Source: Utricularia gibba (taxonomy: Eukaryota > Streptophyta > Magnoliopsida > Lamiales > Lentibulariaceae). Taken from it: a stretch of 24,151 bases of DNA. Location: the NCBI GenBank assembly GCA_002189035.1, contig NEEC01000464.1:1-24151 (forward strand), given 5' to 3'. Under the pieces are notes generated by a model. That model did not search any database, had not been told where the DNA came from, and saw only the letters and a list, made by a program, of their open reading frames with translations. Every line of letters starts with the position of its first letter. Position 1 is the first letter of the stretch. Below are positions 3,442-24,151 of the stretch, piece after piece. Position numbers and translations under genes: made by a program.

Positions 3442-4056
3442 ATGCATCACGATTTTCGTCGAATAGGACCCGATTGGGCTCAGGAGTCGAACCGAACCTT
3501 GGGTCCGGACGAACTTCCCAATGAAAGCACCAACCAAAAACGACAAGCTTTTCCTTCAGAAACCATGTAGGCAGCTGCCGAAAACCAACGTTAATAAATG
3601 GATCACTTTTTTTGCCGGGCTACAAATGACTATGGGCCGAGCGACCGACCTCCGCCCGATCCTGGTGCCCTCGAGAGCGCTCCTCAAATAAAAAGCATGT
3701 GGTTGAGAAAACCATTTGGGGTGCTCATGACATCCTAACTTCAATAAATGCATCACGATTTTCGTCGAATAGGACCCGATTGGGCTCAGGAGTCGAACGA
3801 ACCTTGGGTCCGGACGAACTTCCAATGAAAGCACCCACCAAAAACGACAAGCTTTTCCTTCAGAAACATGTAGCAGCTGCCGAAAACCCAACGTTAATAA
3901 ATGGATCACTTTTTTTCCCGGGCTACAAATGACTATGGGCCGAGCCCGACCCGACCTCCGGCCCGATCCTGGTGCCCCTCGAGAGCGCCTCCTCAAATAT
4001 AAAGCTTGTGGATGAGAAAACCATTTGGGGTGCTCATGACATCCTAACTTCAATAA

Positions 4057-4394
4057 ATGCATCACGATTTTCGTCGAATAGGACCCGATTGGGCTCAGGA
4101 GTCGAACCGAACCTTGGGTCCGGACGAACTTCGAAAGCGACAAGCTTTTCCTTCAGAAACCATGTAGGCAAAAAGCGTTTTTTTCGACAAGCTTTTCCTT
4201 CAGAAAATGTAGGCAGCTGCCGAAAACCCAACGTTAATAAATGGATCACTTTTTTTGCCGGGCTACAAATGACTATGGGCCGAGCCCGACCCGACCTCCG
4301 GCCGATCCTGGTGCCCCTCGAGAGCGCCTCCTCAAATATAAAGCTTGTGGATGAGAAACCATTTGGGGTGCTCATGACATCCTAACTTCAATAA
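4057..4394 (+). repeat. Rearranged 338-bp monomer with internal duplication
   Basis: After GAACTTCG the usual AATGAAAGCACCCAACCAAAAA segment is largely missing. The CGACAAGCTTTTCC stretch occurs twice, starting at 4138 and again at 4185. The copies are joined by a short A5-GCG-T7 stretch (4170-4184) found nowhere else in the window. The first copy runs through CCATGTAGGCA before the break. The unit therefore has an extra HindIII site and combines a deletion, a direct duplication and a small inverted A/T element. Confidence 0.85.
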
Positions 4395-6531
4395 ATGCAT
4401 CAGATTTTCGTCGAATAGGACCGATTGGGCTCAGGAGTCGAACGAACCTTGGGTCCGGACGAACTTCCAACGAAAGCACCCACCCAAAAACGACAAGCTT
4501 TTCCTTCAGAAACATGTAGGCAGCTGCCGAAAACCAACGTTAATAAATGGATCACTTTTTTGCCGGGCTACAAATGACTATGGGCCGAGCCGACCGACTC
4601 CGCCGATCCTGGTGCCCTCGAGAGCGCCTCCTCAAATATAAAGCTTGTGGATGAGAAAACCATTTGGGGTGCTCATGACATCCTAACTTCAATAAATGCA
4701 TCACGATTTTCGTCGAATAGGACCGATTGGGCTCAGGAGTCGAACGAACCTTGGGTCCGGAGAACTTCCCAATGAAAGCACCCACCAAAAACGACAAGCT
4801 TTTCTTCAGAAAAATGTAGGCAGCTGCCGAAAACCCAACGTTAATAAATGGATCACTTTTTTTCCGGGCTACAAATGACTATGGGCCCGAGCCCGACACC
4901 TCCCGGCCCGATCCTGGTGCCCTCGAGAGCGCCTCCTCAAATAAAAGCTTGTGGATGAGAAAACCATTTGGGGTGCTCATGACATCCTAACTTCAATAAA
5001 TGCATCACGATTTTCGTCGAATAGGACCCGATTGGGCTCAGGAGTCGAACAACCTTGGGTCCGGACGAACTTCCCAATGAAAGCACCCAACCAAAAAGAC
5101 AAGCTTTTCCTTCAGAAAATGTAGGCAGCTGCCGAAAACCAACGTTAATAAATGGATCACTTTTTTTGCCGGGCTACAAATGACTATGGCCGAGCGACCG
5201 ACCTCCGGCCCGATCCTGGTGCCCTCGAGAGCGCCTCCTCAAATATAAAGCTTGTGGATGAGAAAACCATTTGGGGTGCTCATGACATCCTAACTTCAAT
5301 AAATGCATCACGATTTTCGTCGAATAGGACCCGATTGGGCTCAGGAGTCGAACCGAACCTTGGGTCCGGACGAACTTCCAATGAAAGCACCCACCCAAAA
5401 ACGACAAGCTTTTCCTTCAGAAACCAGTAGGCAGCTGCCGAAAACCCAACGTTAATAAATGGATCACTTTTTTTCCGGGCTACAAATGACTATGGGCCCG
5501 AGCCGACCCGACTCCGGCCGATCCTGGTGCCCTCGAGAGCGCCTCAAATATAAAGCTTGTGGATGAGAAAACCATTTGGGGTGCTCATGACATCCTAACT
5601 TCAATAAATGCATCACGATTTTCGTCGAATAGGACCGATGGGGCTCAGGAGTCGAACCGAACCTTGGGTCCGGACGAACTTCCCAATGAAAGCACCACCC
5701 AAAAACGACAAGCTTTTCCTTCAGAAACATGTAGCAGCTGCCGAAAACCAACGTTAATAAATGGATCACTTTTTTTGCCGGGCTACAAATGACTATGGGC
5801 CCGAGCCCGACCGACCTCCGCCCGATCCTGGTGCCCTCGAGAGCGCCTCCTCAAATATAAAGCTTGTGGATGAGAAAACATTTGGGGTGCTCATGACATC
5901 CTAACTTCAATAAATGCATCACGATTTTCGTCGAATAGGACCGATTGGGCTCAGGAGTCGAACCGAACTTGGGTCCGGACGAACTTCCCAACGAAAGCAC
6001 CCAACCAAAAACGACAAGCTTTTCCTTCAGAAACCATGTAGGCAGCTGCCGAAACCCAACGTTAATAAATGGATCACTTTTTTTCCCGGGCTACAAATGA
6101 CTATGGGCCCGAGCCGACCCGACCTCCGGCCCGATCCTGGTGCCCCTCGAGAGCGCCTCCTCAAATAAAAAGCTTGTGGATGAGAAAACCATTTGGGGTG
6201 CTCATGACATCCTAACTTCAATAAATGCATCACGATTTTCGTCGAATAGGACCCGATTGGCTCAGGAGTCGAACGAACCTTGGGTCCGGACGAACTTCCC
6301 AATGAAAGCACCCAACCAAAAACGACAAGCTTTTCCTTCAGAAACCATGTAAGCAGCTGCCGAAAACCCAACGTTAATAAATGGATCACTTTTTTTGCCG
6401 GGCTACAAATGACTATGGGCCCGAGCCGACCGACTCCGGCCCGATCCTGGTGCCCGAGAGCGCCTCCTCAAATATAAAGCTTGTGGATGAGAAAACCATT
6501 TGGGGTGCTCATGACATCCTAACTTCAATAA

Positions 6532-6823
6532 ATGCATCACGATTTTCGTCGAATAGGACCCGATTGGGCTCAGGAGTCGAACCGAACCTTGGGTCCGGAC
6601 GAACTTCCCAAAAAACCACCAACCAAAAACGACAAGCTTTTCCTTCAGAAAATGTAGGCAGCTGCCGAAAACCCAACGTTAATAAATGGATCACTTTTTT
6701 TCCGGGCTACAAATGACTATGGGCCCGAGCCCGACCCGACCTCCGGCCCGATCCTGGTGCCCCTCGAGAGCGCCTCCTCAAATATAAAGCTTTGGGGTGC
6801 TCATGACATCCTAACTTCAATAA
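6532..6823 (+). repeat. 292-bp monomer with 19-bp deletion at its right junction
   Basis: At 6788-6795 AAAGC runs straight into TTTGGGGTGC. The intervening TTGTGGATGAGAAAACCAT of a normal unit is absent, which removes the second HindIII site. Short T-rich identity at both deletion edges suggests slippage or microhomology joining. Confidence 0.85.
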
Positions 6824-7741
6824 ATGCATCACGATTTTCGTCGAATAGGACCCGATTGGGCTCAGGAGTCGAACCGAACCTTGGGTCCGGACGAACTTCC
6901 CAATGAAAGCACCAACCAAAAACGACAAGCTTTTCCTTCAGAAACCATGTAGGCAGCTGCGAAAACCCAACGTTAATAAATGGATCACTTTTTTTGCCGG
7001 GCTACAAATGACTATGGGCCAGCCCCGACCCGACCTCCGCCCGATCCTGTGCCTCGAGAGCGCCTCCTCAAATATAAAGCTTGGTGAGAAAACCATTTGG
7101 GGTGCTCATGACATCCTAACTTCAATAAATGCATCACGATTTTCGTCGAATAGGACCGATTGGGCTCAGGAGTCGAACCGAACCTTGGGTCCGGACGAAC
7201 TTCCCAATGAAAGCACCCAACCAAAAACGACAAGCTTTTCCTTCAGAAAAAATGTAGGCAGCTGCCGAAAACCCAACGTTAATAAATGGATCACTTTTTT
7301 GCGGGCTACAAATGACTATGGGCCGAGCCCGACCCGACCTCCGCCCGATCCTGGTGCCCTCGAGAGCGCCTCCTCAAATATAAAGCTTGTGGATGAGAAA
7401 ACCATTTGGGGTGCTCATGACATCCTAACTTCAATAAATGCATCACGATTTTCGTCGAATAGGACCCGATTGGGCTCAGGAGTCGAACCGAACCTTGGGT
7501 CCGGACGAACTTCCCAATGAAAGCACCCAACCAAAAACGACAAGCTTTTCCTTCAGAAAATGTAGGCAGCTGCCGAAAAAACGTTAATAAATGGATCACT
7601 TTTTTTGCCGGGCTACAAATGACTATGGCCCGAGCGACCGACCTCCGGCCCGATCCTGTGCCCCTCGAGAGCGCCTCCTCAAATAAAAGCATGTGGTTGA
7701 GAAAACCATTTGGGGTGCCCATGACATCCTAACTTCAATAA

Positions 7742-7981
7742 ATGTCACGATTTCGTCGAATAGGACCCGATGGGCTCAGAAGTCGAACAGAACCTTGGTC
7801 CGGATGAAAGCACCGAAAAAGTGTAGGCAGCTGCCGAAAACCCAATGTAATAAATGATCACTTTTTTGCGGGCTACAAATGACTATGGTCCCGATCCTGG
7901 TGCCCCTCGAGAGCGCCTCCTCAAATATAAAGCTTGTGGATGAGAAACCATTGGGGTGCTCATGACATCCTAACTTCAAAA
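7742..7981 (+). repeat. Truncated 240-bp B-type monomer with internal deletions
   Basis: The unit keeps B-type markers (CAGAAGTCGAACAG, GGATGAA, GTGTAGG, CCCAATGTAATAA). It has lost material in at least two places. Between 7804 and 7822 the AACGAAAG to CTTTTCCTTCAG part is mostly gone, including the HindIII site. At 7888-7890 TATGG joins TCCCGATCC, so the CCCGA micro-repeat segment is missing. Several single-base losses are added (ATGTCACG, GATTTCG, AAATGATCAC). It sits just before the first recognisable higher-order unit. Confidence 0.85.
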
Positions 7982-9787
7982 ATGCATCGATTTTCGTCGA
8001 ATAGGACCCGATTGGGCTCAGGAGTCGAACCGAACCTTGGGTCCGGCGAACTTCCAATGAAAGCACCCAACCAAAACGACAAGCTTTTCCTTCAGAAACC
8101 ATGTAGGCAGCTGCCGAAAACCAACGTTAATAAATGGATCACTTTTTTTGCGGGCTACAAATGACTATGGGCCCGAGCCGACCCGACCTCCGGCCCGATC
8201 CTGGTGCCCCTCGAGAGCGCCTCCTCAAATAAAAAGCATGTGGTTGAGAAAACCATTTGGGGTGCTCATGACATCCTAACTTCAATAAATGCATCACGAT
8301 TTTCGTCGAATAGACCCGATTGGGCTCAGGAGTCGAACCGAACCTTGGGTCCGGACGAACTTCCCAATGAAAGCACCCAACCAAAAACGACAAGCTTTTC
8401 CTTCAGAAAATGTAGGCAGCTGCCGAAAAACCAACGTTAATAAATGGATCACTTTTTTTGCCGGGCTACAAATGACTATGGGCCCAGCCGACCCGACCTC
8501 CCCGATCCTGGTGCCCCTCGAGAGCGCCTCCTCAAATATAAAGCTTGTGGATGAGAAAACCATTTGGGTGCTCATGACATCCTAACTTCAATAAATGCAT
8601 CACGATTTTCGTCGAATAGGACCCGATTGGGCTCAGGAGTCGAACCGAACCTTGGGTCCGGACCCACCCAACCAAAAACGACAAGCTTTTCCTTCAGAAA
8701 AAATGTAGGCAGCTGCCGAAACCCAACGTTAATAAATGGATCACTTTTTTGGCCGGGCTACAAATGACTATGGGCCCGAGCCCGACCCGACCTCCAGCCC
8801 GATCCTGGTGCCCCTCGAGAGCGCCTCCTCAAATATAAAGCTTGTGGATGAGAAAACCATTTGGGGTGCTCATGACATCCTAACTTCAATAAATGCATCA
8901 CGATTTTCGTCGAATAGGACCCGATTGGGCTCAGGAGTCGAACCGAACCTTGGGTCCGGACGAACTTCCCAATGAAAGCACCCAACCAAAAACGACAAGC
9001 TTTTCCTTCAGAAACCATGTAGGCAGCTGCCGAAAACCAACGTTAATAAATGGATCACTTTTTTTGCCGGGCTACAAATGACTATGGGCCCGAGCGACCC
9101 GACTCCGGCCCGATCCTGGTGCCCCTCGAGAGCGCCTCCTCAAATAAAAAGCTGTGGTGAGAAAAACCATTTGGGGTGCCCATGACATCCTAACTTCAAT
9201 AAATGCATCACGATTTTCGTCGAATAAGACCCGATTGGGCTCAGAAGTCGAACAGAACCTTGGGTCCGGATGAACTCCCCAACGAAAGCACCCACCCAAA
9301 AACGACAAGCTTTTCCTTCAGAAAAATGTAGGCAGCTGCCGAAAACCCAATGTAATAAATGGATCACTTTTTTTCCGGGCTACAAATGACTATGGGCCCG
9401 AGCCCGACCCGACCTCCGCCGATCCTGGTGCCCTCGAGAGCGCCTCCTCAAATATAAAGCTTGTGGATGAGAAAACCATTTGGGGTGCTCATGACATCCT
9501 AACTTCAATAAATGCATCACGATTTTCGTCGAATAGGACCCGATTGGGCTCAGGAGTCGAACCGAACCTTGGGTCCGGACGAACTTCCCAATGAAAGCAC
9601 CCAACCAAAAACGACAAGCTTTTCCTTCAGAAAAATGTAGGCAGCTGCCGAAAACCCAACGTTAATAAATGGATCACTTTTTTTCCCGGGCTACAAATGA
9701 CTATGGGCCCGAGCCCGACCGACCTCCAGCCCGATCCTGGTGCCCTCGAGAGCGCCTCCTCAAATATAAAGCTTGTGGATGAGAAAA
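7948..9787 (+). repeat. Higher-order repeat unit 1 (six monomers, ~1840 bp)
   Basis: It is bounded by the rare CCATTGGGG variant (normal units have CCATTTGGGG) at 7948 and 9788. In order it holds a monomer with ACCAAAACGAC and TTGCGGGC; one preceded by AAAAAGCATGTGGTTGAG; one with AAAAAATGTAGG, TTTGGCCGGG and CTCCAGCCCG; one of plain A type; a B-type unit (9203); and one with TTTCCCGGG. The same ordered markers return in the next two higher-order units. It is the shortest of the three. Confidence 0.65.
9203..9511 (+). repeat. Subtype-B monomer
   Basis: Markers are GTGCCCATGAC upstream, GAATAAGACCC, CAGAAGTCGAACAG, GGATGAACTCCCC, AACGAAAGC, GAAAAATGTAGG and CCCAATGTAATAA. It shows the fullest set of differences from the majority unit. 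Confidence 0.8.
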
Positions 9788-10136
9788 CCATTGGGGTGCT
9801 CATGACATCCTAACTTCAAAAAATGCATCACGATTTTTGTCGAATAGGACCCGATTGGGCTCAGGAGTCGAACCGAACCTTGGGTCCGGACGAACTTCCC
9901 AATGAAAGCACCCAACCAAAACGACAAGCTTTTCCTTCAGAAACCATGTAGGCAGCTGCCGAAAACCCAACGTTAATAAATGGATCACTTTTTTTGCCGG
10001 GCTACAAATGACTATGGGCCCGAGCCCGACCCGACCTCCGGCCCGATCCTGGTGCCCCTCGAGAGCGCCTCCTCAAATAAAAAAGCATGTGGTTGAGAAA
10101 ACCATTTGGGGTGCCATGACATCCTAACTTCAATAA

Positions 10137-10446
10137 ATGCATCACGATTTTCGTCGAATAGACCCGATTGGGCTCAGAAGTCGAACCGAACCTTGGGTCC
10201 GGATGAACTTCCCAACGAAAGCACCCACCAAAAACGACAAGCTTTTCCTTCAGAAAAATGTAGGCAGCTGCCGAAAACCCAACGTAATAAATGGATCACT
10301 TTTTTTGCCGGGCTACAAATGACTATGGGCCCGAGCCCGACCCGACCTCCGGCCCGATCCTGTGCCCCTCGAGAGCGCCTCCTCAAATAAAAGCATTGTG
10401 GTTGAGAAAACCATTTGGGGTGCTCATGACATCCTAACTTCAATAA
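10137..10446 (+). repeat. Subtype-B monomer (start of four-monomer rhythm)
   Basis: It is preceded by AAAAAAGCATGTGGTTGAG and GTGCCATGAC. It carries GAATAGACCC, CAGAAGTCGAACCG, GGATGAAC, AACGAAAGC, AAAAATGTAGG and CCCAACGTAATAA. The next B units follow at 11370, 12609, 13850 and 15083. Confidence 0.8.
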
Positions 10447-11369
10447 ATGCATCACGATTTTCGTCGAATAGGACCCGATTGGGCTCAGGAGTCGAACCGA
10501 ACCTTGGGTCCGGACGAACTTCCCAATGAAACCAACCAAAAAACGACAAGCTTTTCCTTCAGAAAAATGTAGGCAGCTGCCGAAAACCCAACGTTAATAA
10601 ATGGATCACTTTTTTGCCGGGCTACAAATGACTATGGGCCCGAGCCCGACCCGACCTCCCCGATCCTGGTGCCCTCGAGAGCGCCTCTCAAATATAAAGC
10701 TTGTGGATGAGAAAACATTTGGGGTGCTCATGACATCCTAACTTCAATAAATGCATCACGATTTTCGTCGAATAGGACCGATTGGGCTCAGGAGTCGAAC
10801 CGAACCTTGGGTCCGGACGAACTTCCCAATGAAACCACCCAACCAAAAACGACAAGCTTTTCCTTCAGAAAAAATGTAGGCAGCTGCCGAAAACCCAACG
10901 TTAATAAATGGATCACTTTTTTTCCGGGCTACAAATGACTATGGGCCGAGCCCGACCCGACCTCCAGCCCGATCCTGGTGCCCTCGAGAGCGCCTCCTCA
11001 AATATAAAGCTTGTGGATGAGAAAACCATTTGGGGTGCTCATGACATCCTAACTTCAATAAATGCATCACGATTTTCGTCGAATAGGACCCGATTGGCTC
11101 AGGAGTCGAACCGAACCTTGGGTCCGGACGAACTTCCCAATGAAAGCACCCAACCAAAAACGACAAGCTTTTCCTTCAGAAACCATGTAGGCAGCTGCCG
11201 AAAACCAACGTTAATAAATGGATCACTTTTTTTGCCGGGCTACAAATGACTATGGGCCCGAGCGACCCGACCTCCGGCCCGATCCTGTGCCCCTCGAGAG
11301 CGCCTCCTCAAATAAAAAGCATGTGGTTGAGAAAACCATTTGGGGTGCCATGACATCCTAACTTCAATA

Positions 11370-11680
11370 ATGCATCACGATTTTCGTCGAATAAGACCGA
11401 TTGGGCTCAGAAGTCGAACAGAACCTTGGGTCCGGATGAACATCCCAACGAAAGCACCCACCAAAAACGACAAGCTTTTCCTTCAGAAAAAGTGTAGGCA
11501 GCTGCCGAAAACCCAATGTAATAAATGGATCACTTTTTTTGCCGGGCTACAAATGACTATGGGCCCGAGCCCGACCCGACCTCCAGCCCGATCTGGTGCC
11601 CCTCGAGAGCGCCTCCTCAAATATAAAGCTTGTGGATGAGAAAACCATTTGGGGTGCTCATGACATCCTAACTTCAAAAA
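11370..11680 (+). repeat. Subtype-B monomer
   Basis: It is preceded by AAAAAGCATGTGGTTGAG and GTGCCATGAC. It carries GAATAAGACCG, CAGAAGTCGAACAG, GATGAACATCCC, AAAAAGTGTAGG and CCCAATGTAATAA. The last two also occur in the truncated unit at 7742. Confidence 0.8.
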
Positions 11681-12608
11681 ATGCATCACGATTTTCGTCG
11701 AATAGGACCCGATTGGGCTCAGAGTCGAACCGAACCTTGGGTCCGGACGAACTTCCAATGAAAGCACCCAACCAAAAACGACAAGCTTTTCCTTCAGAAC
11801 CATGTAGCAGCTGCCGAAAACCCAACGTTAATAAATGGATCACTTTTTTTTCCCGGGCTACAAATGACTATGGGCCCGAGCCCGACCCGACCTCCGGCCC
11901 GATCCTGGTGCCCTCGAGAGCGCTCCTCAAATATAAAGCTTGTGGATGAGAAAACCATTGGGGTGCTCATGACATCCTAACTTCAATAAATGCATCACGA
12001 TTTTCGTCGAATAGGACCCGATTGGGCTCAGGAGTCGAACCGAACCTTGGGTCCGGACGAACTTCCCAATGAAAGCACCCAACCAAAAACGACAAGCTTT
12101 TCCTTCAGAAACCATGTAGGCAGCTGCCGAAAACCCAACGTTAATAAATGGATCACTTTTTTTGCGGGCTACAAATGACTATGGGCCCGAGCCCGACCCG
12201 ACCTCCGGCCCGATCCTGGTGCCCTCGAGAGCGCCTCCTCAAATAAAAAGCATGTGGTTGAGAAAACCATTTGGGGTGCTCATGACATCCTAACTTCAAT
12301 AAATGCATCACGATTTTCGTCGAATAGGACCCGATTGGGCTCAGGAGTCGAACCGAACCTTGGGTCCGGCGAACTTCCCAATGAAAGCACCCAACCAAAA
12401 CGACAAGCTTTTCCTTCAGAAACCATGTAGGCAGCTGCCGAAAACCCAACGTTAATAAATGGATCACTTTTTTTGCGGGCTACAAATGACTATGGGCCCG
12501 AGCCCGACCCGACCTCCGGCCGATCCTGGTGCCCTCGAGAGCGCCTCCTCAAATAAAAGCTGTGGTTGAGAAAACCATTTGGGTGCTCATGACATCCTAC
12601 TTCAATAA

Positions 12609-12918
12609 ATGCATCACGATTTTCGTCGAATAGACCCGATTGGGCTCAGAAGTCGAACAGAACCTTGGGTCCGGATGAATTCCCAACGAAAGCACCCACC
12701 AAAAACGACAAGCTTTTCCTTCAGAAAAATGTAGGCAGCTGCCGAAAACCCAACGTTAATAAATGGATCACTTTTTTTGCCGGGCTACAAATGACTATGG
12801 GCCCGAGCCCGACCCGACCTCCGGCCCGATCCTGTGCCCCTCGAGAGCGCCTCCTCAAATAAAAAAAGCTTGGTTGAGAAAACCATTTGGGGTGCTCATG
12901 ACATCCTAACTTCAATAA
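12609..12918 (+). repeat. Subtype-B monomer
   Basis: It is preceded by AAAAGCTGTGGTTGAG and CATCCTACTTC. It carries GAATAGACCC, CAGAAGTCGAACAG, GATGAATTCCC, AACGAAAGC and AAAAATGTAGG. GATGAATTCCC creates an EcoRI site (GAATTC) that I see in no other unit. Confidence 0.8.
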
Positions 12919-13849
12919 ATGCATCACGATTTTCGTCGAATAGGACCCGATTGGGCTCAGGAGTCGAACGAACCTTGGGTCCGGACGAACTTCCCAATGA
13001 AAGCACCCAACCAAAAACGACAAGCTTTTCCTTCAGAAAAAATGTAGGCAGCTGCCGAAAACCCAACGTTAATAAATGGATCACTTTTTTTCCGGGCTAC
13101 AAATGACTATGGGCCCGAGCCCGACCCGACCTCCGCCCGATCCTGGTGCCCCTCGAGAGCGCCTCCTCAAATATAAAGCTTGTGGATGAGAAAACCATTT
13201 GGGGTGCTCATGACATCCTAACTTCAATAAATGCATCACGATTTTCGTCGAATAGGACCCGATTGGGCTCAGGAGTCGAACCGAACCTTGGGTCCGGACG
13301 AACTTCCCAATGAAAGCACCCAACCAAAAACGACAAGCTTTTCCTTCAGAAAAAATGTAGGCAGCTGCCGAAAACCCAACGTTAATAAATGGATCACTTT
13401 TTTGGCCGGGCTACAAATGACTATGGGCCCGAGCCGACCCGACCTCCAGCCCGATCTGGTGCCCCTCGAGCGCCTCAATATAAAGCTTGTGGATGAGAAA
13501 ACCATTTGGGGTGCTCATGACATCCTAACTTCAATAAATGCATCACGATTTTCGTCGAATAGGACCCGATTGGGCTCAGGAGTCGAACCGAACCTTGGGT
13601 CCGGACGAACTTCCCAATGAAAGCACCCAACCAAAAACGACAAGCTTTTCCTTCAGAAACCATGTAGGCAGCTGCCGAAAACCCAACGTTAATAAATGGA
13701 TCACTTTTTTTGGGGCTACAAATGACTATGGGCCCGAGCCCGACCCGACCTCCGGCCCGATCCTGGTGCCCTCGAGAGCGCCTCCTCAAATAAAAAGCAT
13801 GTGGTTGAGAAAACCATTTGGGGTGCTCATGACATCCTGACTTCAATAA

Positions 13850-14156
13850 ATGCATCACGATTTTCGTCGAATAGACCCGATTGGGCTCAGAAGTCGAACA
13901 GAACCTTGGGTCCGGATGAACATCCCAACGAAAGCACCCCCAAAAACGACAAGCTTTTCCTTCAGAAAAAGTGTAGGCAGCTGCCGAAAACCTGTAATAA
14001 ATGGATCACTTTTTTGCCGGGCTACAAATGACTATGGGCCCGAGCCCGACCCGACCTCCGGCCCGATCCTGTGCCCCTCGAGAGCGCCTCCTCAAATAAA
14101 AAAGCATATGGTTGAGAAAACCATTTGGGGTGCTCATGACATCCTAACTTCAATAA
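13850..14156 (+). repeat. Subtype-B monomer
   Basis: It is preceded by AAAAAGCATGTGGTTGAG and CATCCTGACTT. It carries GAATAGACCC, CAGAAGTCGAACAG, GATGAACATCCC, AAAAAGTGTAGG and a shortened AACCTGTAATAA. Confidence 0.8.
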
Positions 14157-15082
14157 ATGCATCACGATTTTCGTCGAATAGGACCCGATTGGGCTCAGGA
14201 GTCGAACCGAACCTTGGGTCCGGACGAACTTCCCAATGAAAGCACCCAAAAAAACGACAAGCTTTTCCTTGAGAAACCATGTAAGCAGCTGCCGAAAACA
14301 ACGTTAATAAATGGATCACTTTTTTTCCCGGGCTACAAATGACTATGGGCCCGAGCCCGACCCGACCTCCGGCCCGATCCTGGTGCCCCTCGAGAGCGCC
14401 TCCTCAAATATAAAGCTTGTGGATGAGAAAACCATTGGGGTGCTCATGACATCCTAACTTCAAAAAATGCATCACGATTTTCGTCGAATAGGACCCGATT
14501 GGGCTCAGGAGTCGAACCGAACCTTGGGTCCGGACGAACTTCCCAATGAAAGCACCCAACCAAAACGACAAGCTTTTCCTTCAGAAACATGTAGGCAGCT
14601 GCCGAAAACCCAACGTTAATAAATGGATCACTTTTTTTGCGGGCTACAAATGACTATGGGCCCGAGCCCGACCGACCTCCGGCCCGATCCTGGTGCCCCT
14701 CGAGAGCGCCTCCTCAAATAAAAAGCATGTGGTTGAGAAAACCATTTGGGGTGCCCATGACATCCTACTTCAATAAATGCATCACGATTTTCGTCGAATA
14801 GACCCGATTGGGCTCAGGAGTCGAACCGAACCTTGGGTCCGGAAACTTCCCAATGAAAGCACCCAACCAAAACGACAAGCTTTTCCTTCAGAAACATGTA
14901 GGCAGCTGCCGAAAACCCAACGTTAATAAATGGATAACTTTTTTGGGGCTACAAATGACTATGGGCCCGAGCCCGACCCGACCTCCGGCCCGATCCTGGT
15001 GCCCCTCGAGAGCGCCTCCTCAAATAAAAAGCATGTGGTTGAGAAAACCATTTGGGTGCTCATGACATCCTGACTTCAATAA

Positions 15083-15387
15083 ATGCATCACGATTTTCGT
15101 CGAATAGACCCGATTGGGCTCAGGAGTCGAACAGAACCTTGGGTCCGGATGAACATCCAACGAAAGCACCACCCAAAAACGACAAGCTTTTCCTTCAGAA
15201 AAATGTAGGCAGCTGCCGAAAACCCAACGTAATAAATGGATCACTTTTTTGCCGGGCTACAAATGACTATGGGCCGAGCCCGACCCGACCTCCGGCCCGA
15301 TCCTGTGCCCCTCGAGAGCGCTCCTCAAATAAAAGCTTGTGGATGAGAAAACCATTTGGGGTGCTCATGACATCCTAACTTCAATAA
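15083..15387 (+). repeat. Subtype-B monomer (last of the regular series)
   Basis: It is preceded by AAAAAGCATGTGGTTGAG and CATCCTGACTT, as for the unit at 13850. It carries GAATAGACCC, GAACAGAACC, GATGAACATCC, AAAAATGTAGG and CCCAACGTAATAA. CAGGAGTCG is of the A type, so it is partly mixed. Confidence 0.75.
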
Positions 15388-15770
15388 ATGCATCACGATT
15401 TTCGTCGAATAGGACCCGATTGGGCTCAGGAGTCGAACCGAACCTTGGGTCCGGACGAACTTCCAACGAAAGCACCACCCAAAAACGACAAGCTTTTCCT
15501 TCAGAAACCATGTAGGCAGCTGCCGAAAACCCAACGTTAATAAATGGATCACTTTTTTTGCGGGCTACAAATGACTATGGGCCCGAGCCCGACCCGACCT
15601 CCGGCCCGATCCTGGTGCCCTCGAGAGCGCCTCCTCAAATAAAAAGCTGTGGTTGAGAAAACCATTTGGGGTGCCCATGACATCCTAACTTCAATAAATG
15701 CATCACGATTTTCGTCGAATAGGACCCGATCGGGCTCAGGAGTCGAACCGAACCTTGGGTCCGGAAACTT

Positions 15771-16007
15771 CCCAATGAAAGCACCAACAAAAAGACGACA
15801 AGCTTTTCCTTCAGAAACCATGTAGGCAGCTGCCGAAAACCCAACGTTAATAAATGGATCACTTTTTTTGCGGGCTACAAATGACTATCCCAATGAAAGC
15901 ACCCAACCAAAAACGACAAGCTTTTCCTTCAGAAACCATGTAGGCAGCTGCCGAAAACCCAACGTTAATAAATGGATCACTTTTTTTGCCGGGCTACAAA
16001 TGACTAT
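15771..16007 (+). repeat. Tandem duplication of a ~118-bp partial monomer (430-bp interval)
   Basis: The segment from CCCAATGAAAGC to TGACTAT occurs at 15771-15888 and again at 15889-16007. At the junction GACTAT is followed directly by CCCAATG, which skips the CCCGA, XhoI, HindIII and ATGCAT parts. As a result two unit starts (15698 and 16128) are 430 bp apart. The copies differ (first CACCAACAAAAAGACGAC, second CACCCAACCAAAAACGAC; first TTGCGGGC, second TTGCCGGGC). This suits an out-of-register exchange between different monomers better than a very recent copy. Confidence 0.9.
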
Positions 16008-18632
16008 GGGCCCGAGCCCGACCGACCTCCGGCCCGATCCTGGTGCCCCTCGAGAGCGCCTCCTCAAATAAAAAGCTTGTGGATGAGAAAACCATTTGGG
16101 GTGCTCATGACATCCTAACTTCAATAAATGCATCACGATTTTTCGTCGAATAGGACCCGATTGGGCTCAGGAGTCGAACCGAACCTTGGGTCCGGACGAA
16201 CTTCCCAACGAAAGCACCCAACCAAAAACGACAAGCTTTTCCTTCAGAAACCATGTAAGCAGCTGCCGAAAACCCAACGTTAATAAATGGATCACTTTTT
16301 TTCCGGGCTACAAATGACTATGGGCCCGAGCCCGACCCGACCTCCGGCCCGATCCTGGTGCCCCTCGAGAGCGCCCTCCTCAAATATAAAGCTTGTGGAT
16401 GAGAAAACCATTTGGGGTGCTCATGACATCCTAACTTCAATAAATGCATCACGATTTTCGTCGAATAGGACCCGATTGGGCTCAGGAGTCGAACCGAACC
16501 TTGGGTCCGGACGAACTTCCCAATGAAAGCACCCAACCAAAAACGACAAGCTTTTCCTTCAGAAACCATGTAGGCAGCTGCCGAAAACCCAACGTTAATA
16601 AATGGATCACTTTTTTTTCCGGGCTACAAATGACTATGGGCCCGAGCCGACCCGACCTCCGGCCCGATCCTGGTGCCCCTCGAGAGCGCCTCCTCAAATA
16701 AAAAGCTTGTGGATGAGAAAACCATTTGGGTGCTCATGACATCCTAACTTCAATAAATGCATCACGATTTTCGTCGAATAGGACCCGATTGGGCTCAGGA
16801 GTCGAACCGAACCTTGGGTCCGGACGAACTTCCCAACGAAAGCACCCAACCAAAAACGACAAGCTTTTCCTTCAGAAACCATGTAAGCAGCTGCCGAAAA
16901 CCCAACGTTAATAAATGGATCACTTTTTTTCCCGGGCTACAAATGACTATGGGCCCGAGCCCGACCCGACCTCCGGCCCGATCCTGGTGCCCCTCGAGAG
17001 CGCCTCCTCAAATATAAAGCTTGTGGATGAGAAAACCATTTGGGGTGCTCATGACATCCTAACTTCAATAAATGCATCACGATTTTCGTCGAATAGGACC
17101 CGATTGGGCTCAGGAGTCGAACCGAACCTTGGGTCCGGACGAACTTCCCAATGAAAGCACCCAACCAAAAACGACAAGCTTTTCCTTCAGAAACCATGTA
17201 GCAGCTGCCGAAAACCCAACGTTAATAAATGGATCACTTTTTTTGCCGGGCTACAAATGACTATGGGCCCGAGCCCGACCCGACCTCCGGCCCGATCCTG
17301 GTGCCCCTCGAGAGCGCCTCCTCAAATAAAAAGCTTGTTGAGAAAACCATTTGGGGCTCATGACATCCTAACTTCAATAAATGCATCACGATTTTCGTCG
17401 AATAGGACCCGATTGGGCTCAGGAGTCGAACCGAACCTTGGGTCCGGACGAACTTCCCAACGAAAGCACCCACCAAAAACGACAAGCTTTTCCTTCAAAC
17501 CATGTAGGCAGCTGCCGAAAACCCAACGTTAATAAATGGATCACTTTTTTTGCCGGGCTACAAATGACTATGGGCCCGAGCCCGACCCGACCTCCGGCCC
17601 GATCCTGGTGCCCCTCGAGAGCGCCTCCTCAAATATAAAGCTTGTGGATGAGAAAACCATTTTGGGTGCTCATGACATCCTAACTTCAATAAATGCATCA
17701 CGATTTTCGTCGAATAGGACCCGATTGGGCTCAGGAGTCGAACCGAACCTTGGGTGGACGAACTTCCCAATGAAAGCACCCAACCAAAAACGACAAGCTT
17801 TTCCTTCAGAAACCATGTAAGCAGCTGCCGAAAACCCAACGTTAATAAATGGATCACTTTTTTTCCCGGCTACAAATGACTATGGGCCCGAGCCCGACCC
17901 GACCTCCGGCCCGATCCTGGTGCCCCTCGAGAGCGCCTCCTCAAATATAAAGCTTGTGGATGAGAAAACCATTTGGGGTGCTCATGACATCCTAACTTCA
18001 ATAAATGCATCACGATTTTCGTCGAATAGGACCCGATTGGGCTCAGGAGTCGAACCGAACCTTGGGTCCGGACGAACTTCCCAATGAAAGCACCCAACCA
18101 AAAACGACAAGCTTTTCCTTCAGAAACCATGTAGGCAGCTGCCGAAAACCCAACGTTAATAAATGGATCACTTTTTTTCCCGGGCTACAAATGACTATGG
18201 GCCCGAGCCCGACCCGACCTCCGGCCCGATCCTGGTGCCCCTCGAGAGCGCCTCCTCAAATATAAAGCTTGTGGATGAGAAAACCATTTGGGGTGCTCAT
18301 GACATCCTAACTTCAATAAATGCATCACGATTTTCGTCGAATAGGACCCGATTGGGCTCAGGAGTCGAACCGAACCTTGGGTCCGGACGAACTTCCCAAT
18401 GAAAGCACCCAACCAAAAACGACAAGCTTTTCCTTCAGAAACCATGTAAGCAGCTGCCGAAAACCCAACGTTAATAAATGGATCACTTTTTTTCCGGGCT
18501 ACAAATGACTATGGGCCCGAGCCCGACCCGACCTCCGGCCCGATCCTGGTGCCCCTCGAGAGCGCCTCCTCAAATAAAAGCATGTGGTTGAGAAAACCAT
18601 TTGGGGTGCTCATGACATCCTAACTTCAATAA

Positions 18633-18943
18633 ATGCATCACGATTTTCGTCGAATAGGACCCGATTGGGCTCAGGAGTCGAACAGAACCTTGGGTCCGGA
18701 TGAACTTCCAACGAAAGCACCCACCCAAAAACGACAAGCTTTTCCTTCAGAAAAATGTAGGCAGCTGCCGAAAACCCAATTAATAAATGGATCACTTTTT
18801 TTGCCGGGCTACAAATGACTATGGGCCCGAGCCCGACCCGACCTCCGGCCCGATCCTGGTGCCCCTCGAGAGCGCCTCCTCAAATATAAAGCTTGTGGAT
18901 GAGAAAACCATTTGGGGTGCTCATGACATCCTAACTTCAATAA
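18633..18943 (+). repeat. Subtype-B monomer in the right block
   Basis: It is preceded by AAAAGCATGTGGTTGAG. It carries GAACAGAACC, GGATGAAC, CCAACGAAAGC, CACCCACCC, AAAAATGTAGG and a shortened CCCAATTAATAA. It is surrounded by A-type units. Confidence 0.75.
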
Positions 18944-19861
18944 ATGCATCACGATTTTCGTCGAATAGGACCCGATTGGGCTCAGGAGTCGAACCGAACC
19001 TTGGGTCCGGACGAACTTCCCAATGAAAGCACCCAACCAAAAACGACAAGCTTTTCCTTCAGAAACCATGTAGCAGCTGCCGAAAACCCAACGTTAATAA
19101 ATGGATCACTTTTTTTGCCGGGCTACAAATGACTATGGGCCCGAGCCCGACCCGACCTCCGGCCCGATCCTGGTGCCCCTCGAGAGCGCCTCCTCAAATA
19201 AAAAGCTTGTTGAGAAAACCATTTGGGGTGCTCATGACATCCTAACTTCAATAAATGCATCACGATTTTCGTCGAATAGGACCCGATTGGGCTCAGGAGT
19301 CGAACGAACCTTGGGTCCGGACGAACTTCCCAACGAAAGCACCCACCAAAAACGACAAGCTTTTCCTTCAGAAACATGTAGCAGCTGCCGAAAACCCAAC
19401 GTTAATAAATGGATCACTTTTTTTTGCCGGGCTACAAATGACTATGGCCCGAGCCCGACCCGACCTCCGGCCCGATCCTGGTGCCCCTCGAGAGCGCCTC
19501 CTCAAATATAAAGCTTGTGGATGAGAAAACCATTTGGGGTGCTCATGACATCCTAACTTCAATAAATGCATCACGATTTTCGTCGAATAGGACCCGATTG
19601 GGCTCAGGAGTCGAACCGAACCTTGGGTCCGGACGAACTTCCCAATGAAAGCACCCAACCAAAAACGACAAGCTTTTCCTTCAGAAACCATGTAGGCAGC
19701 TGCCGAAAACCCAACGTTAATAAATGGATCACTTTTTTTGCCGGGCTACAAATGACTATGGGCCCGAGCCCGACCCGACCTCCGGCCCGATCCTGGTGCC
19801 CCTCGAGAGCGCCTCCTCAAATATAAAGCTTGTGGATGAGAAAACCATTTGGGGTGCTCAT

Positions 19862-19905
19862 GACATCCTAACTTCAATAAATGCATCACGATTTTCGTCG
19901 AATAG
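19862..19905 (+). other. Most conserved segment of the monomer (reference copy)
   Basis: The stretch from GACATCC through AATAAATGCATCACG to TCGAATAG is nearly unchanged in all units, including the indel-rich left block. The exceptions I noticed include CAAAAAATGC (9823, 11681, 14467), ATGTCACG (7742), ATCAGATT (4395), CATCCTGACTT (13850, 15083) and GATTTTTCG (16128). It holds ATGCAT and a four-T run that hardly varies. Selection for protein binding or positioning is possible. Lack of the C/G runs that vary elsewhere may explain it just as well. Confidence 0.5.
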
Positions 19906-19921
19906 GACCCGATTGGGCTCA

Positions 19922-19932
19922 GGAGTCGAACC
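19922..19932 (-). promoter_or_regulatory. Pol III B-box-like match on minus strand (reference copy)
   Basis: Read on the minus strand the sequence is GGTTCGACTCC, which fits the RNA polymerase III internal B-box consensus GGTTCGANNCC. It recurs in A-type units but is broken in most B-type units by CAGAAGTCGAACAG. I found no convincing A-box 30-60 bp upstream on that strand and no tRNA fold. A T4 run lies roughly 75-80 bp downstream on that strand (complement of GAGAAAACC). The match may be chance, multiplied by the array. Confidence 0.2.
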
Positions 19933-20009
19933 GAACCTTGGGTCCGGACGAACTTCCCAATGAAAGCACCCAACCAAAAACGACAAGCTTTTCCTTCAGA
20001 AACCATGTA

Positions 20010-20019
20010 GGCAGCTGCC
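20010..20019. other. 10-bp perfect palindrome GGCAGCTGCC (reference copy)
   Basis: The palindrome contains a PvuII site and an E-box-type CAGCTG. It is present in most units, but G-loss (GTAGCAG) or G-to-A (GTAAGCAG) variants shorten it at one end. The corresponding position in the other half-unit (GGTGCTCATG) is not palindromic. No function can be assigned. Confidence 0.5.
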
Positions 20020-20074
20020 GAAAACCCAACGTTAATAAATGGATCACTTTTTTTGCCGGGCTACAAATGACTAT

Positions 20075-20095
20075 GGGCCCGAGCCCGACCCGACC
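20075..20095 (+). repeat. GC-rich CCCGA micro-repeat (reference copy)
   Basis: Within each unit a GGGCCC is followed by short tandem CCCGA-like words, ending in CCCGACC. This is the most length-variable part of the monomer. Shortened forms such as GAGCGACC, GAGCCGACC and GAGCCCGACCGACC occur across the left and middle blocks. Replication slippage or sequencing error in C/G runs would both act here. Confidence 0.7.
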
Positions 20096-20140
20096 TCCGG
20101 CCCGATCCTGGTGCCCCTCGAGAGCGCCTCCTCAAATATA

Positions 20141-20299
20141 AAGCTTGTGGATGAGAAAACCATTTGGGGTGCTCATGACATCCTAACTTCAATAAATGCA
20201 TCACGATTTTCGTCGAATAGGACCCGATTGGGCTCAGGAGTCGAACCGAACCTTGGGTCCGGACGAACTTCCCAACGAAAGCACCCAACCAAAAACGAC
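20141..20299 (+). repeat. Half-unit H2 (159 bp) of the ancestral dimer
   Basis: This half runs from the second HindIII site of the reference monomer to the base before the first HindIII site of the next unit. It begins with the same AAGCTT as H1, then has a comparable GAGAAAACCAT word (H1: CAGAAACCAT), the AATAAATGCATCAC core (H1: AATAAATGGATCAC), and a GAACCGAACCT segment in place of H1's GACCCGACCT. Most subtype-diagnostic bases of the array (GACGAA/GATGAA, AATGAAAG/AACGAAAG, GGATGAG/GGTTGAG) lie in this half. Confidence 0.8.
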
Positions 20300-21446
20300 A
20301 AGCTTTTCCTTCAGAAACCATGTAAGCAGCTGCCGAAAACCCAACGTTAATAAATGGATCACTTTTTTTGCCGGGCTACAAATGACTATGGCCGAGCCCG
20401 ACCCGACCTCCGGCCCGATCCTGGTGCCCCTCGAGAGCGCCTCCTCAAATATAAAGCTTGTGGATGAGAAAACCATTTGGGGTGCTCATGACATCCTAAC
20501 TTCAATAAATGCATCACGATTTTCGTCGAATAGGACCCGATTGGGCTCAGGAGTCGAACCGAACCTTGGGTCCGGACGAACTTCCCAATGAAAGCACCCA
20601 ACCAAAAAACGACAAGCTTTTCCTTCAGAAACCATGTAGGCAGCTGCCGAAAACCCAACGTTAATAAATGGATCACTTTTTTTGCCGGGCTACAAATGAC
20701 TATGGGCCCGAGCCCGACCCGACCTCCGGCCCGATCCTGGTGCCCCTCGAGAGCGCCTCCTCAAATAAAAGCTTGTGGATGAGAAAACCATTTGGGTGCT
20801 CATGACATCCTAACTTCAATAAATGCATCACGATTTTCGTCGAATAGGACCCGATTGGGCTCAGGAGTCGAACCGAACCTTGGGTCCGGACGAACTTCCC
20901 AACGAAAGCACCCAACCAAAAACGACAAGCTTTTCCTTCAGAAACCATGTAGCAGCTGCCGAAAACCCAACGTTAATAAATGGATCACTTTTTTTGCCGG
21001 GCTACAAATGACTATGGGCCCGAGCCCGACCCGACCTCCGGCCCGATCCTGGTGCCCCTCGAGAGCGCCTCCTCAAATATAAAGCTTGTGGATGAGAAAA
21101 CCATTTGGGGTGCTCATGACATCCTAACTTCAATAAATGCATCACGATTTTCGTCGAATAGGACCCGATTGGGCTCAGGAGTCGAACCGAACCTTGGGTC
21201 CGGACGAACTTCCCAATGAAAGCACCCAACCAAAAACGACAAGCTTTTCCTTCAGAAACCATGTAGCAGCTGCCGAAAACCCAACGTTAATAAATGGATC
21301 ACTTTTTTTCCGGGCTACAAATGACTATGGGCCCGAGCCCGACCGACCTCCGGCCCGATCCTGGTGCCCCTCGAGAGCGCCTCCTCAAATAAAAAGCTTG
21401 TTTGAGAAAACCATTTGGGGTGCTCATGACATCCTAACTTCAATAA

Positions 21447-21758
21447 ATGCATCACGATTTTCGTCGAATAGGACCCGATTGGGCTCAGGAGTCGAACGAA
21501 CCTTGGGTCCGGATGAACTTCCCAACGAAAGCACCCACCAAAAACGACAAGCTTTTCCTTCAGAAAAATGTAGGCAGCTGCCGAAAACCCAACGTTAATA
21601 AATGGATCACTTTTTTTGCCGGGCTACAAATGACTATGGGCCCGAGCCCGACCCGACCTCCGGCCCGATCCTGGTGCCCCTCGAGAGCGCCTCCTCAAAT
21701 ATAAAGCTTGTGGATGAGAAAACCATTTGGGGTGCTCATGACATCCTAACTTCAATAA
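21447..21758 (+). repeat. Subtype-B-like monomer in the right block
   Basis: It is preceded by AAAAAGCTTGTTTGAG. It carries GAACGAACC, GGATGAAC, AACGAAAGC, CACCCACC and AAAAATGTAGG. Confidence 0.7.
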
Positions 21759-23012
21759 ATGCATCACGATTTTCGTCGAATAGGACCCGATTGGGCTCAG
21801 GAGTCGAACCGAACCTTGGGTCCGGACGAACTTCCCAATGAAAGCACCCAACCAAAAACGACAAGCTTTTCCTTCAGAAACCATGTAGGCAGCTGCCGAA
21901 AACCCAACGTTAATAAATGGATCACTTTTTTTGCGGGCTACAAATGACTATGGGCCCGAGCCCGACCCGACCTCCGGCCCGATCCTGGTGCCCCTCGAGA
22001 GCGCCTCCTCAAATAAAAAGCTTATGAGAAAACCATTTGGGGTGCTCATGACATCCTAACTTCAATAAATGCATCACGATTTTCGTCGAATAGGACCCGA
22101 TTGGGCTCAGGAGTCGAACCGAACCTTGGGTCCGGACGAACTTCCCAACGAAAGCACCCACCCAAAAACGACAAGCTTTTCCTTCAGAAACCATGTAGGC
22201 AGCTGCCGAAAACCCAACGTTAATAAATGGATCACTTTTTTTTGCCGGGCTACAAATGACTATGGGCCCGAGCCCGACCCGACCTCCGGCCCGATCCTGG
22301 TGCCCCTCGAGAGCGCCTCCTCAAATATAAAGCTTGTGGATGAGAAAACCATTTGGGGTGCTCATGACATCCTAACTTCAATAAATGCATCACGATTTTC
22401 GTCGAATAGGACCCGATTGGGCTCAGGAGTCGAACCGAACCTTGGGTCCGGACGAACTTCCCAACGAAAGCACCCAACCAAAAACGACAAGCTTTTCCTT
22501 CAGAAACCATGTAGGCAGCTGCCGAAAACCCAACGTTAATAAATGGATCACTTTTTTTGCCGGGCTACAAATGACTATGGGCCCGAGCCCGACCCGACCT
22601 CCGGCCCGATCCTGGTGCCCCTCGAGAGCGCCTCCTCAAATAAAAGCTTGTGGATGAGAAAACCATTTGGGGTGCTCATGACATCCTAACTTCAATAAAT
22701 GCATCACGATTTTCGTCGAATAGGACCCGATTGGGCTCAGGAGTCGAACCGAACCTTGGGTCCGGACGAACTTCCCAATGAAAGCACCCAACCAAAAACG
22801 ACAAGCTTTTCCTTCAGAAACCATGTAAGCAGCTGCCGAAAACCCAACGTTAATAAATGGATCACTTTTTTCCCGGGCTACAAATGACTATGGGCCCGAG
22901 CCCGACCCGACCTCCGGCCCGATCCTGGTGCCCCTCGAGAGCGCCTCCTCAAATAAAAAGCTTGTGGTTGAGAAAACCATTTGGGGTGCTCATGACATCC
23001 TAACTTCAATAA

Positions 23013-23323
23013 ATGCATCACGATTTTCGTCGAATAGGACCCGATTGGGCTCAGGTCGAACGAACCTTGGGTCCGGATGAACTTCCCAACGAAAGCACCC
23101 ACCCAAAAACGACAAGCTTTTCCTTCAGAAACCATGTAGGCAGCTGCCGAAAACCCAACGTTAATAAATGGATCACTTTTTTTGCCGGGCTACAAATGAC
23201 TATGGCCCGAGCCCGACCCGACCTCCGGCCCGATCCTGGTGCCCCTCGAGAGCGCCTCCTCAAATATAAAGCTTGTGGATGAGAAAACCATTTGGGGTGC
23301 TCATGACATCCTAACTTCAATAA
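23013..23323 (+). repeat. Subtype-B-like monomer in the right block
   Basis: It is preceded by AAAAAGCTTGTGGTTGAG. It has CTCAGGTCGAACG (three bases lost from GGAGTCG), GGATGAAC, AACGAAAGC and CACCCACCC, but the A-type CCATGTAGG. Confidence 0.7.
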
Positions 23324-23949
23324 ATGCATCACGATTTTCGTCGAATAGGACCCGATTGGGCTCAGGAGTCGAACCGAACCTTGGGTCCGGACGAACTTCC
23401 CAATGAAAGCACCCAACCAAAAACGACAAGCTTTTCCTTCAGAAACCATGTAAGCAGCTGCCGAAAACCCAACGTTAATAAATGGATCACTTTTTTTGCC
23501 GGGCTACAAATGACTATGGCCCGAGCCCGACCCGACCTCCGGCCCGATCCTGGTGCCCCTCGAGAGCGCCTCCTCAAATATAAAGCTTGTGGATGAGAAA
23601 ACCATTTGGGGTGCTCATGACATCCTAACTTCAATAAATGCATCACGATTTTCGTCGAATAGGACCCGATTGGGCTCAGGAGTCGAACCGAACCTTGGGT
23701 CCGGACGAACTTCCCAATGAAAGCACCCAACCAAAAACGACAAGCTTTTCCTTCAGAAACCATGTAGCAGCTGCCGAAAACCCAACGTTAATAAATGGAT
23801 CACTTTTTTTGCCGGGCTACAAATGACTATGGGCCCGAGCCCGACCGACCTCCGGCCCGATCCTGGTGCCCCTCGAGAGCGCCTCCTCAAATATAAAGCT
23901 TGTGGATGAGAAAACCATTTGGGTGCTCATGACATCCTAACTTCAATAA

Positions 23950-24151
23950 ATGCATCACGATTTTCGTCGAATAGGACCCGATTGGGCTCAGGAGTCGAAC
24001 CGAACCTTGGGTCCGGACGAACTTCCCAACGAAAGCACCCAACCAAAAACGACAAGCTTTTCCTTCAGAAACCATGTAGGCAGCTGCCGAAAACCAACGT
24101 TAATAAATGGATCACTTTTTTTTGCCGGGCTACAAATGACTATGGGCCCGA
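23950..24151 (+). repeat. Partial monomer at window end
   Basis: The last unit is cut after 202 bp, within GGGCCCGA. The array continues beyond the window, so its right boundary is not visible. Confidence 0.95.

What the first reader, a model, noticed from the sequence alone, without database searches (positions are those of the whole stretch)
19985..20299. The 315-bp monomer is a fossil dimer of two ~157-bp half-units
The two HindIII sites of each unit divide it into 156 and 159 bp. The halves align in order at a constant offset: 20014-20047 against 20171-20204 gives 25 of 34 identities without gaps, and 20086-20107 against 20242-20264 gives 16 of 23 columns. Both halves also share AAGCTT, an AGAAA(A)CCAT word and AATAAATG at matching positions. 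This implies an older satellite of about 157 bp that doubled, diverged and then spread as a dimer. The half-length is close to a nucleosome's worth of DNA.
Basis: seen in the sequence. Interest (0 to 1): 0.75.

Follow-up and report, generated by a model that had tools for sequence, protein, structure and literature searches.

The report
Satellite repeat built from doubled half-units
The repeated DNA that fills this piece of a tiny-genome plant (most likely a bladderwort) is a doubled unit: each ~315-base repeat consists of two related ~157-base halves that parted long ago, related arrays keep the same pairing, and a younger round of doubling is visible in another array.

Summary
Confirmed, with corrections. 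The window is one whole contig (C197) of ~78 head-to-tail copies of a ~315-bp satellite. Halves H1 (156 bp) and H2 (159 bp) align over nearly their full length at ~60-64% identity; 0 of 1000 shuffles reach the score under any of five scoring schemes. In 36 stretches from 34 contigs H1 and H2 alternate, with two same-type neighbours, both in C271. Subfamilies as little as 65-69% alike per half keep the arrangement; a tree of halves from 20 contigs splits H1 from H2 with 100/100 support, so the pairing predates the sampled subfamilies. A distant single-unit relative (131-bp tandem copies, E 3e-7) joins the tree between H1 and H2. No ~157-bp period showed in 59 contig starts. A younger doubling shows on C20. 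Corrections: HindIII sites are neither in every unit nor ancestral; no sampled subfamily has clearly more similar halves, so 'diverged, then joined' stays open; the nucleosome link is untested. The genome is probably Utricularia gibba, whose putative centromeres are said in print to lack satellites. A new member of a known kind.

The parts
1..24151 (+). satellite array, ~78 head-to-tail units, the whole contig C197
   Evidence: units tile the contig on one strand; 99.8% covered
19985..20299 (+). one 315-bp dimer unit (reference copy)
19985..20140 (+). half-unit H1 (156 bp)
   Evidence: HindIII to HindIII; group H1
20141..20299 (+). half-unit H2 (159 bp)
   Evidence: HindIII to next unit start; group H2
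20014..20047 (+). well-matching core of H1 (partner 20171-20204 in H2), around AATAAATG.ATCAC
   Evidence: 25 of 34 identities
20171..20204 (+). well-matching core of H2
20111..20138 (+). 28-bp stretch of H1 almost free of substitutions among 339 units; related words in both halves of C404 and in the 131-bp relative
   Evidence: 59 of 2000 permutations give as long a run, so weak
15800..15917 (+). 118-bp remnant unit (unit positions 1-90 joined to 286-315): an internal deletion, not a half-unit step
4133..4188 (+). short irregular stretch between a truncated unit and the next HindIII start
7542..8080 (+). irregular units (one matched only to unit position 283; the next 87% to the reference)

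Best explanation
The array is a dimeric satellite: two diverged copies (H1, H2) of one ancestral element of about 130-160 bp became linked head to tail, and from then on the pair, not the half, was the unit that unequal crossing over and gene conversion multiplied and made uniform. Shown here: common descent of the halves, their alternation, one pairing older than the sampled subfamilies, and a much later repeat of the same doubling in another array (C20, unit of two dimers). Inferred: that the mechanism is unequal exchange between units; that the halves are now too different (~60% identical) to recombine often with each other, which locks the dimer; and that the arrays form (peri)centromeric heterochromatin, because 31 of the 34 contigs in which I read the family are shorter than 140 kb and the other 3 have it at an end.
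For: Half-half homology over nearly the full length, 0 of 1000 shuffles. Alternation with 2 same-type neighbours, both in C271, in 36 stretches from 34 contigs. H1 and H2 are the two sides of a 100/100 branch in a tree of 40 half consensi from 20 contigs. Units within the A arrays are 96-99% alike at lags 1-12, gaps left out, while halves within a unit are ~60% alike, the mark of homogenisation at dimer level. No sign of exchange between halves: 21 of 53 minor alleles at differing columns equal the partner half, 18.2 expected. Half-half homology also in subfamilies C (C131) and E (C404), absent in two units each of the 343- and 534-bp families. Single-unit relative M (131-bp tandem copies): nhmmer E 3.4e-7 for 1 Mb, no hit at E 0.1 in 303 controls, joins between H1 and H2. 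Younger doubling: C20 unit identity 0.898 at lag 1, 0.984 at lag 2, alternating to lag 8.
Against: No ~157-bp period was found in 59 sampled contig starts of 700-1200 bases (3 of them all N; the scan sees only well-kept repeats; nearest values 140 and 130 bp), so the presumed founder satellite is not seen as such; M is 131 bp and sits inside a 1.01-kb repeat. H1-H2 identity is not clearly higher in any other subfamily (0.49-0.57 within subfamilies), against my expectation after reading C404. One H1-to-H2 switch at the shared word AGAAACCAT exists (C103 near 25.1 kb, L003 near 4105), a half-register junction that the 'locked' view would make rare; it lies in a low-quality stretch and may be an artefact. 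L003 and L014 show several same-type neighbours among broken matches. Centromere position and function were not tested.
Confidence: 0.93

Rival explanations
1. The halves diverged first: two related but already different monomer types lay in one old satellite pool, an exchange put them side by side, and the heterodimer spread (as in alpha-satellite dimers). 'Doubled, then diverged' is then the wrong order.
For: The branch between the H1 and H2 groups is long (0.27 + 0.18 changes per column) before the first subfamily split; no subfamily shows clearly more similar halves; the third type M is 52-57% identical to H1, 45-59% to H2, and these are 53-59% identical to each other over the same columns (8 contigs).
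Against: Equally expected if a homodimer formed early and evolved for long before the sampled subfamilies. No array of H1-only or H2-only monomers was found.
Confidence: 0.4
2. Chance or shared composition: GC-rich, CCCGACC-like words make the halves look alike.
For: Both halves contain similar simple words.
Against: 0 of 1000 dinucleotide shuffles; reversed and reverse-complemented H2 stay near the shuffles; two other satellite families of the genome show no such signal.
Confidence: 0.01
3. Convergence: separate sequences acquired the same protein-binding or nucleosome-favouring words at a fixed spacing.
For: The best-matching block is short and word-like (AATAAATG.ATCAC).
Against: The alignment runs over nearly the whole half, and both sides of the tree show broadly the same subfamilies, as descent predicts. 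Columns shared by the halves are no less variable among units than the others (0.0184 against 0.0166, permutation p 0.59).
Confidence: 0.02
4. The source of the family is a spacer subrepeat, possibly of the rDNA intergenic spacer: the 131-bp copies (M) inside a 1.01-kb GC-rich repeat are the older, single-unit form, and the satellite escaped from it.
For: M is a single-half tandem outside the dimer groups; 828 exact 30-mers, in the first 100 places listed on contigs C9-C23 in clusters of ~1.01-kb repeats, with gaps of 10.6-11.3 and 21 kb between some clusters; the neighbouring stretch of C362 is withheld, as DNA close to human rRNA genes might be; rDNA-derived satellites are known, e.g. in tomato (PMC2679016, abstract and outline).
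Against: No rRNA was seen: Rfam found nothing in L090, L091, L034, L075, L030 or L109-L111 (L109 is all N), 5.8S gave no match in the genome (39 of 2618 candidates scored), and two 18S searches failed on the machine. Direction is open: the spacer may have captured a satellite monomer.
Confidence: 0.3

Closest known systems
Primate alpha-satellite dimers (suprachromosomal families 1-2) and higher-order repeats
   Same: Two alternating diverged monomers; unit-to-unit identity far above half-to-half identity; passages of PMC8122249 give up to ~30% difference within a dimer and up to 97-100% identity between higher-order blocks.
   Different: Halves here differ more (~40%), half length is 157 instead of 171 bp, GC is ~50%, and no CENP-B box or CENH3 binding was tested.
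Gn7c161, the 161-bp (peri)centromeric repeat of Genlisea nigrocaulis, same plant family
   Same: Close in length to the half-unit; the most abundant tandem repeat of a small Lentibulariaceae genome (PMC4542322, passages).
   Different: Given there as a 161-bp motif; its full sequence was not at hand, so no homology test was made.
rDNA-spacer-derived satellite (tomato)
   Same: A spacer subrepeat gives rise to satellite arrays (PMC2679016, abstract and outline).
   Different: Here only a distant 131-bp relative in an unproven spacer context.
Dimeric repeat of the beetle satellite of P. subdepressus (2 x 72 bp)
   Same: Two clades of variants organised in alternating dimers (PMC8122249, passage).
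   Different: Shorter unit; sequence not compared.

Membership tests
dimeric (higher-order) satellite DNA | long head-to-tail arrays | tested here: met
   24-kb contig all array; 9352 matches of a degenerate H2 word, control 0
dimeric (higher-order) satellite DNA | unit made of two homologous, diverged monomers | tested here: met
dimeric (higher-order) satellite DNA | the two monomer types alternate | tested here: met
   36 stretches, 34 contigs, 2 same-type neighbours (C271); left out of that call: L003, L005, L007, L014, seen, where L005 is regular, L007 has one broken match, and L003 and L014 are noisy with several same-type neighbours
dimeric (higher-order) satellite DNA | units more alike than the monomers within a unit | tested here: met
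   0.96-0.99 (A arrays, gaps left out) against ~0.6
dimeric (higher-order) satellite DNA | monomeric relatives exist in the genome | tested here: inconclusive
   131-bp tandem relative M; no 157-bp period in 59 contig starts
plant centromeric satellite | monomer near nucleosome length | tested here: met
   156 and 159 bp, by length only
plant centromeric satellite | AT-rich sequence (said of most flowering plants in PMC8122249, passage) | tested here: not met
   GC 0.48-0.51
plant centromeric satellite | present at the centromere of all chromosomes | tested here: inconclusive
   at ends of 3 of 13 long contigs sampled at both ends; the listing for the degenerate H2 word, which appears to run in contig order, starts at C7, so no match on C1-C6
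plant centromeric satellite | bound by CENH3 | not testable with these tools
   needs ChIP or immuno-FISH
rDNA-spacer-derived satellite | homologous subrepeat next to rRNA genes | tested here: inconclusive
   relative found, rRNA neighbourhood withheld or unseen

The most novel reading that the evidence does not exclude
The genome, said to have putative centromeres without satellites, carries at least three satellite families of ~315, ~341 and ~534 bp, and one of them records stepwise doubling: a single ~131-157-bp element that may still survive in the rDNA spacer, an ancient locked dimer of 315 bp, and young units of two dimers (~620 bp). The satellite would then have escaped from the spacer and taken over pericentromeric DNA.
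Probability: 0.25. Interest if true: 0.65.

Novelty: new member of a known kind. Interest (0 to 1): 0.42.

Why it matters
It gives a layered series in one small plant genome: an old dimer shared by the sampled subfamilies, and a second doubling in which neighbouring units still differ by only ~10%. That makes the question of how higher-order repeats start testable with reads from one species. It also bears on a printed statement that putative U. gibba centromeres lack satellite repeats (PMC8333044, passage): arrays exist (9352 H2 words, about 2.9 Mb if one per 315 bp), and 31 of the 34 contigs in which I read them are shorter than 140 kb.

Tried and rejected
Chance similarity: rejected by shuffles, reversed controls and the two unrelated families. 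Exchange between halves: no excess of partner-half alleles. Selection on shared words: no lower variability at columns shared by the halves; the low-variation stretch in H1 is only weakly unusual (59 of 2000). Longer higher-order structure in the window family: none at lags 1-12 in 10 contigs. Expectation that older subfamilies have more similar halves: not borne out, although single words (GCATCAC, CTCGAGAGCGCC) are shared in C404. Relation to the 343- and 534-bp families: no profile hit; thirds of the 534-bp unit were not compared. rRNA beside M: nothing seen. Nucleosome-type periodicity: not seen. Papers: five searches (listings with starts of abstracts) showed no paper on this satellite; the genome paper of 2017 is not held, so it may be described there.

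Full report
What was checked. The window is the whole of contig C197 of a genome of 100,091,633 bases in 516 contigs. It is satellite from end to end, on one strand, in units of mostly 303-316 bp. The coordinates, the two HindIII sites and the 25 of 34 identities are right. Global and local alignments of H1 with H2 beat all of 1000 mononucleotide and 1000 dinucleotide shuffles under each of five scoring schemes, while reversed and reverse-complemented H2 stay near the shuffles, at most ~2.3 standard deviations above. In a scan of offsets 10-157 of the circular unit the 15 best windows all lie at offset 157.

Where it comes from. The contigs include an rbcL gene on C516, read here as plastid, and a cox1 on C515, read as mitochondrial, whose translation has two adjacent cysteines (SLLLLCCSALVE), a mark of Utricularia as I recall from the literature. 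A paper passage gives the U. gibba assembly as NEEC01000001-NEEC01000518 (PMC6982007), close to 516 contigs, and another mentions a 6.8-Mb Unitig_8 (PMC8333044), close to C451 here (6,822,880 bases). I therefore take the genome to be Utricularia gibba; this is an inference.

How the halves are arranged elsewhere. I read 13 stretches of arrays, the first 700-1200 bases of 59 further contigs (not a random choice: eight were known large contigs and several neighbour known arrays by number), both ends of 13 long contigs, and longer pieces of divergent arrays. The dimer family is in 23 of the 59 starts, its distant relative M in 3, and 3 are all N. The main repeat periods in these starts are ~300-316, ~337-347 and ~520-537 bp, besides telomere repeats, the M periods (130, ~1010 bp) and a few others such as 444 and 140 bp; none is near 157 bp, though the scan would miss badly decayed repeats. 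Assigning each half by best match, H1 and H2 alternate in 36 stretches from 34 contigs, with two same-type neighbours, both in C271. That call left out L003, L005, L007 and L014; L005 is regular, L007 has one broken match, and L003 and L014 are noisy mosaics with several same-type neighbours among broken matches.

Age of the dimer. Majority sequences of both halves could be made for 31 contigs; 20 of these went into a tree. All 20 H1 and all 20 H2 fall on opposite sides of a branch with 100/100 support, and both sides show broadly the same subfamilies (A: C197 and like; B: C270, C50, C106 and like, the last not always grouping with the others; C: C131, C300 and like; D: C510; E: C404, C209). 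Between subfamilies H1 is 69-86% and H2 65-85% identical; H1 against H2 within a subfamily is 49-57% over aligned columns or 55-70% in local alignments, which in some contigs cover only half the length. So one pairing precedes the sampled subfamilies. The halves are not clearly more alike in any of them, so I cannot tell whether a homodimer diverged for long before the radiation or two diverged monomers were joined.

A single-unit relative. On C362, C350 and C494, tandem copies 131-134 bp apart inside a 1.01-kb GC-rich repeat match a profile of the halves over ~117 columns (E 3.4e-7 for 1 Mb, 27.8 bits; no hit at E 0.1 among 300 resampled sequences and 3 reversed ones; no hit to the 16 other loci given, which include the 341- and 534-bp families). 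Each copy corresponds to one half. In a tree on 125 columns M (4 copies) is one group and joins between H1 (98/93) and H2 (98/97). It is thus a monomeric cousin outside the dimer groups. An exact 30-mer of it occurs 828 times; in the first 100 places listed it comes in clusters of ~1.01-kb repeats, with gaps of 10.6-11.3 or 21 kb between some clusters. The stretch next to it on C362 is withheld. An rDNA spacer would fit, but no rRNA was seen.

How it most likely works. Units inside the window family are 96-99% alike at lags 1-12, gaps left out, halves only ~60%: turnover acts on the dimer. Minor alleles at columns where the halves differ match the partner half little more than expected (21 of 53; 18.2 expected). 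I infer that unequal exchange and conversion between dimers keep arrays uniform, and that exchange between halves became rare once they had diverged. One junction from H1 into H2 at the shared word AGAAACCAT (C103 near 25.1 kb) looks like a half-register exchange, but lies in a poor stretch; among 390 spacings of the H2 word in the 36 stretches none is near 157 bp (two are under 280: 269 and 200 bp, both in C271). The same doubling has happened again, much later: on C20 neighbouring dimers are 0.898 alike and second neighbours 0.984, alternating to lag 8. C312 and C50 show weaker patterns of this sort, C232 is unclear, C131, C300, C296, C460, C192, C510 and C270 are flat or nearly so, and C104 has too few units (12 contigs tested). 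Two units each of the unrelated 343- and 534-bp families have no half-half homology, so the doubled make-up is not a general feature of satellites here.

Place and function. The degenerate H2 word has 9352 matches (control 0). The listing shows only the first 100 places, appears to run in contig order and starts at C7, so C1-C6, among them C1 (8.5 Mb) and C2 (6.2 Mb), have no match; the word misses some copies, for example the C106 type. The dimer family lies at ends of 3 of 13 long contigs (C213 end; C460 and C510 both ends); counting the 341- and 534-bp families (C244 end, C451 end, C480 start; C505 start), 7 of 13 have satellite at an end, and C213, C244, C451 (a short, decayed run) and C480 have telomere repeats at the other end. 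Several held contigs have lengths that are multiples of 2,500, so some ends may be cut. This fits arms running from telomere to a satellite block where assembly stops, that is (peri)centromeric DNA, but is no proof. A paper states that putative U. gibba centromeres lack satellite repeats (PMC8333044, passage); 31 of the 34 contigs in which I read the family are shorter than 140 kb, so that statement may rest on what was assembled.

Known or new. Alternating dimers and higher-order repeats are well known (PMC8122249, passages), and satellites derived from rDNA spacers are known too (PMC2679016, abstract and outline). Genlisea, of the same family, has a 161-bp (peri)centromeric repeat (PMC4542322, passages), whose relation to this one was not tested. 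Five searches listed no paper on this satellite; the 2017 genome paper is not held. Verdict: the observation and its main interpretation stand; a new member of a known kind with an unusually clear history.

Noticed in passing
L037 + L093 (C20:1-4700): Second-tier doubling: neighbouring dimers 0.898 identical, second neighbours 0.984, alternating to lag 8; C312 and C50 show weaker patterns, and part of the listing for C8 suggests a unit of four dimers.
   Followed up: partly
C362, C350, C494 (L091, L034, L075, L110, L111): 1.01-kb GC-rich repeat with 131-bp tandem copies distantly related to the half-unit; 828 exact 30-mers genome-wide; possibly rDNA spacer.
   Followed up: partly
L090 (C404:1-5000), L030 + L092 (C209): C404 has a 2335-bp tandem unit holding a run of about six diverged half-units plus ~1.3 kb of other, partly AT-rich sequence; C209 carries nearly the same halves. 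A satellite piece caught in a longer repeat.
   Followed up: partly
L104, L105, L080, L083 (~341 bp) and L106, L025 (~534 bp): Two further satellite families unrelated to this one by profile search; units from L104, L105, L106 and L025 show no half-half homology; a 25-mer of the ~341-bp family has 3336 matches at up to 2 mismatches, control 0.
   Followed up: partly
window 1-24151; L003, L014: Units carry on average 4-7 deletions but 0.1-0.9 insertions relative to the reference copy, 10 of the 15 commonest deletions in runs of one base; L003 and L014 are mosaics of perfect and scrambled pieces. This looks like long-read consensus error, so exact unit lengths should not be trusted.
   Followed up: partly
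L003 near 4105 (C103 near 25.1 kb): An H1 head runs straight into an H2 body at the shared word AGAAACCAT, leaving two H2 bodies ~152 bp apart: a possible half-register exchange, or an artefact of a poor stretch.
   Followed up: partly
C213, C244, C451, C480: Long contigs with telomere repeats at one end and a satellite family at the other, a possible guide to centromere positions.
   Followed up: no
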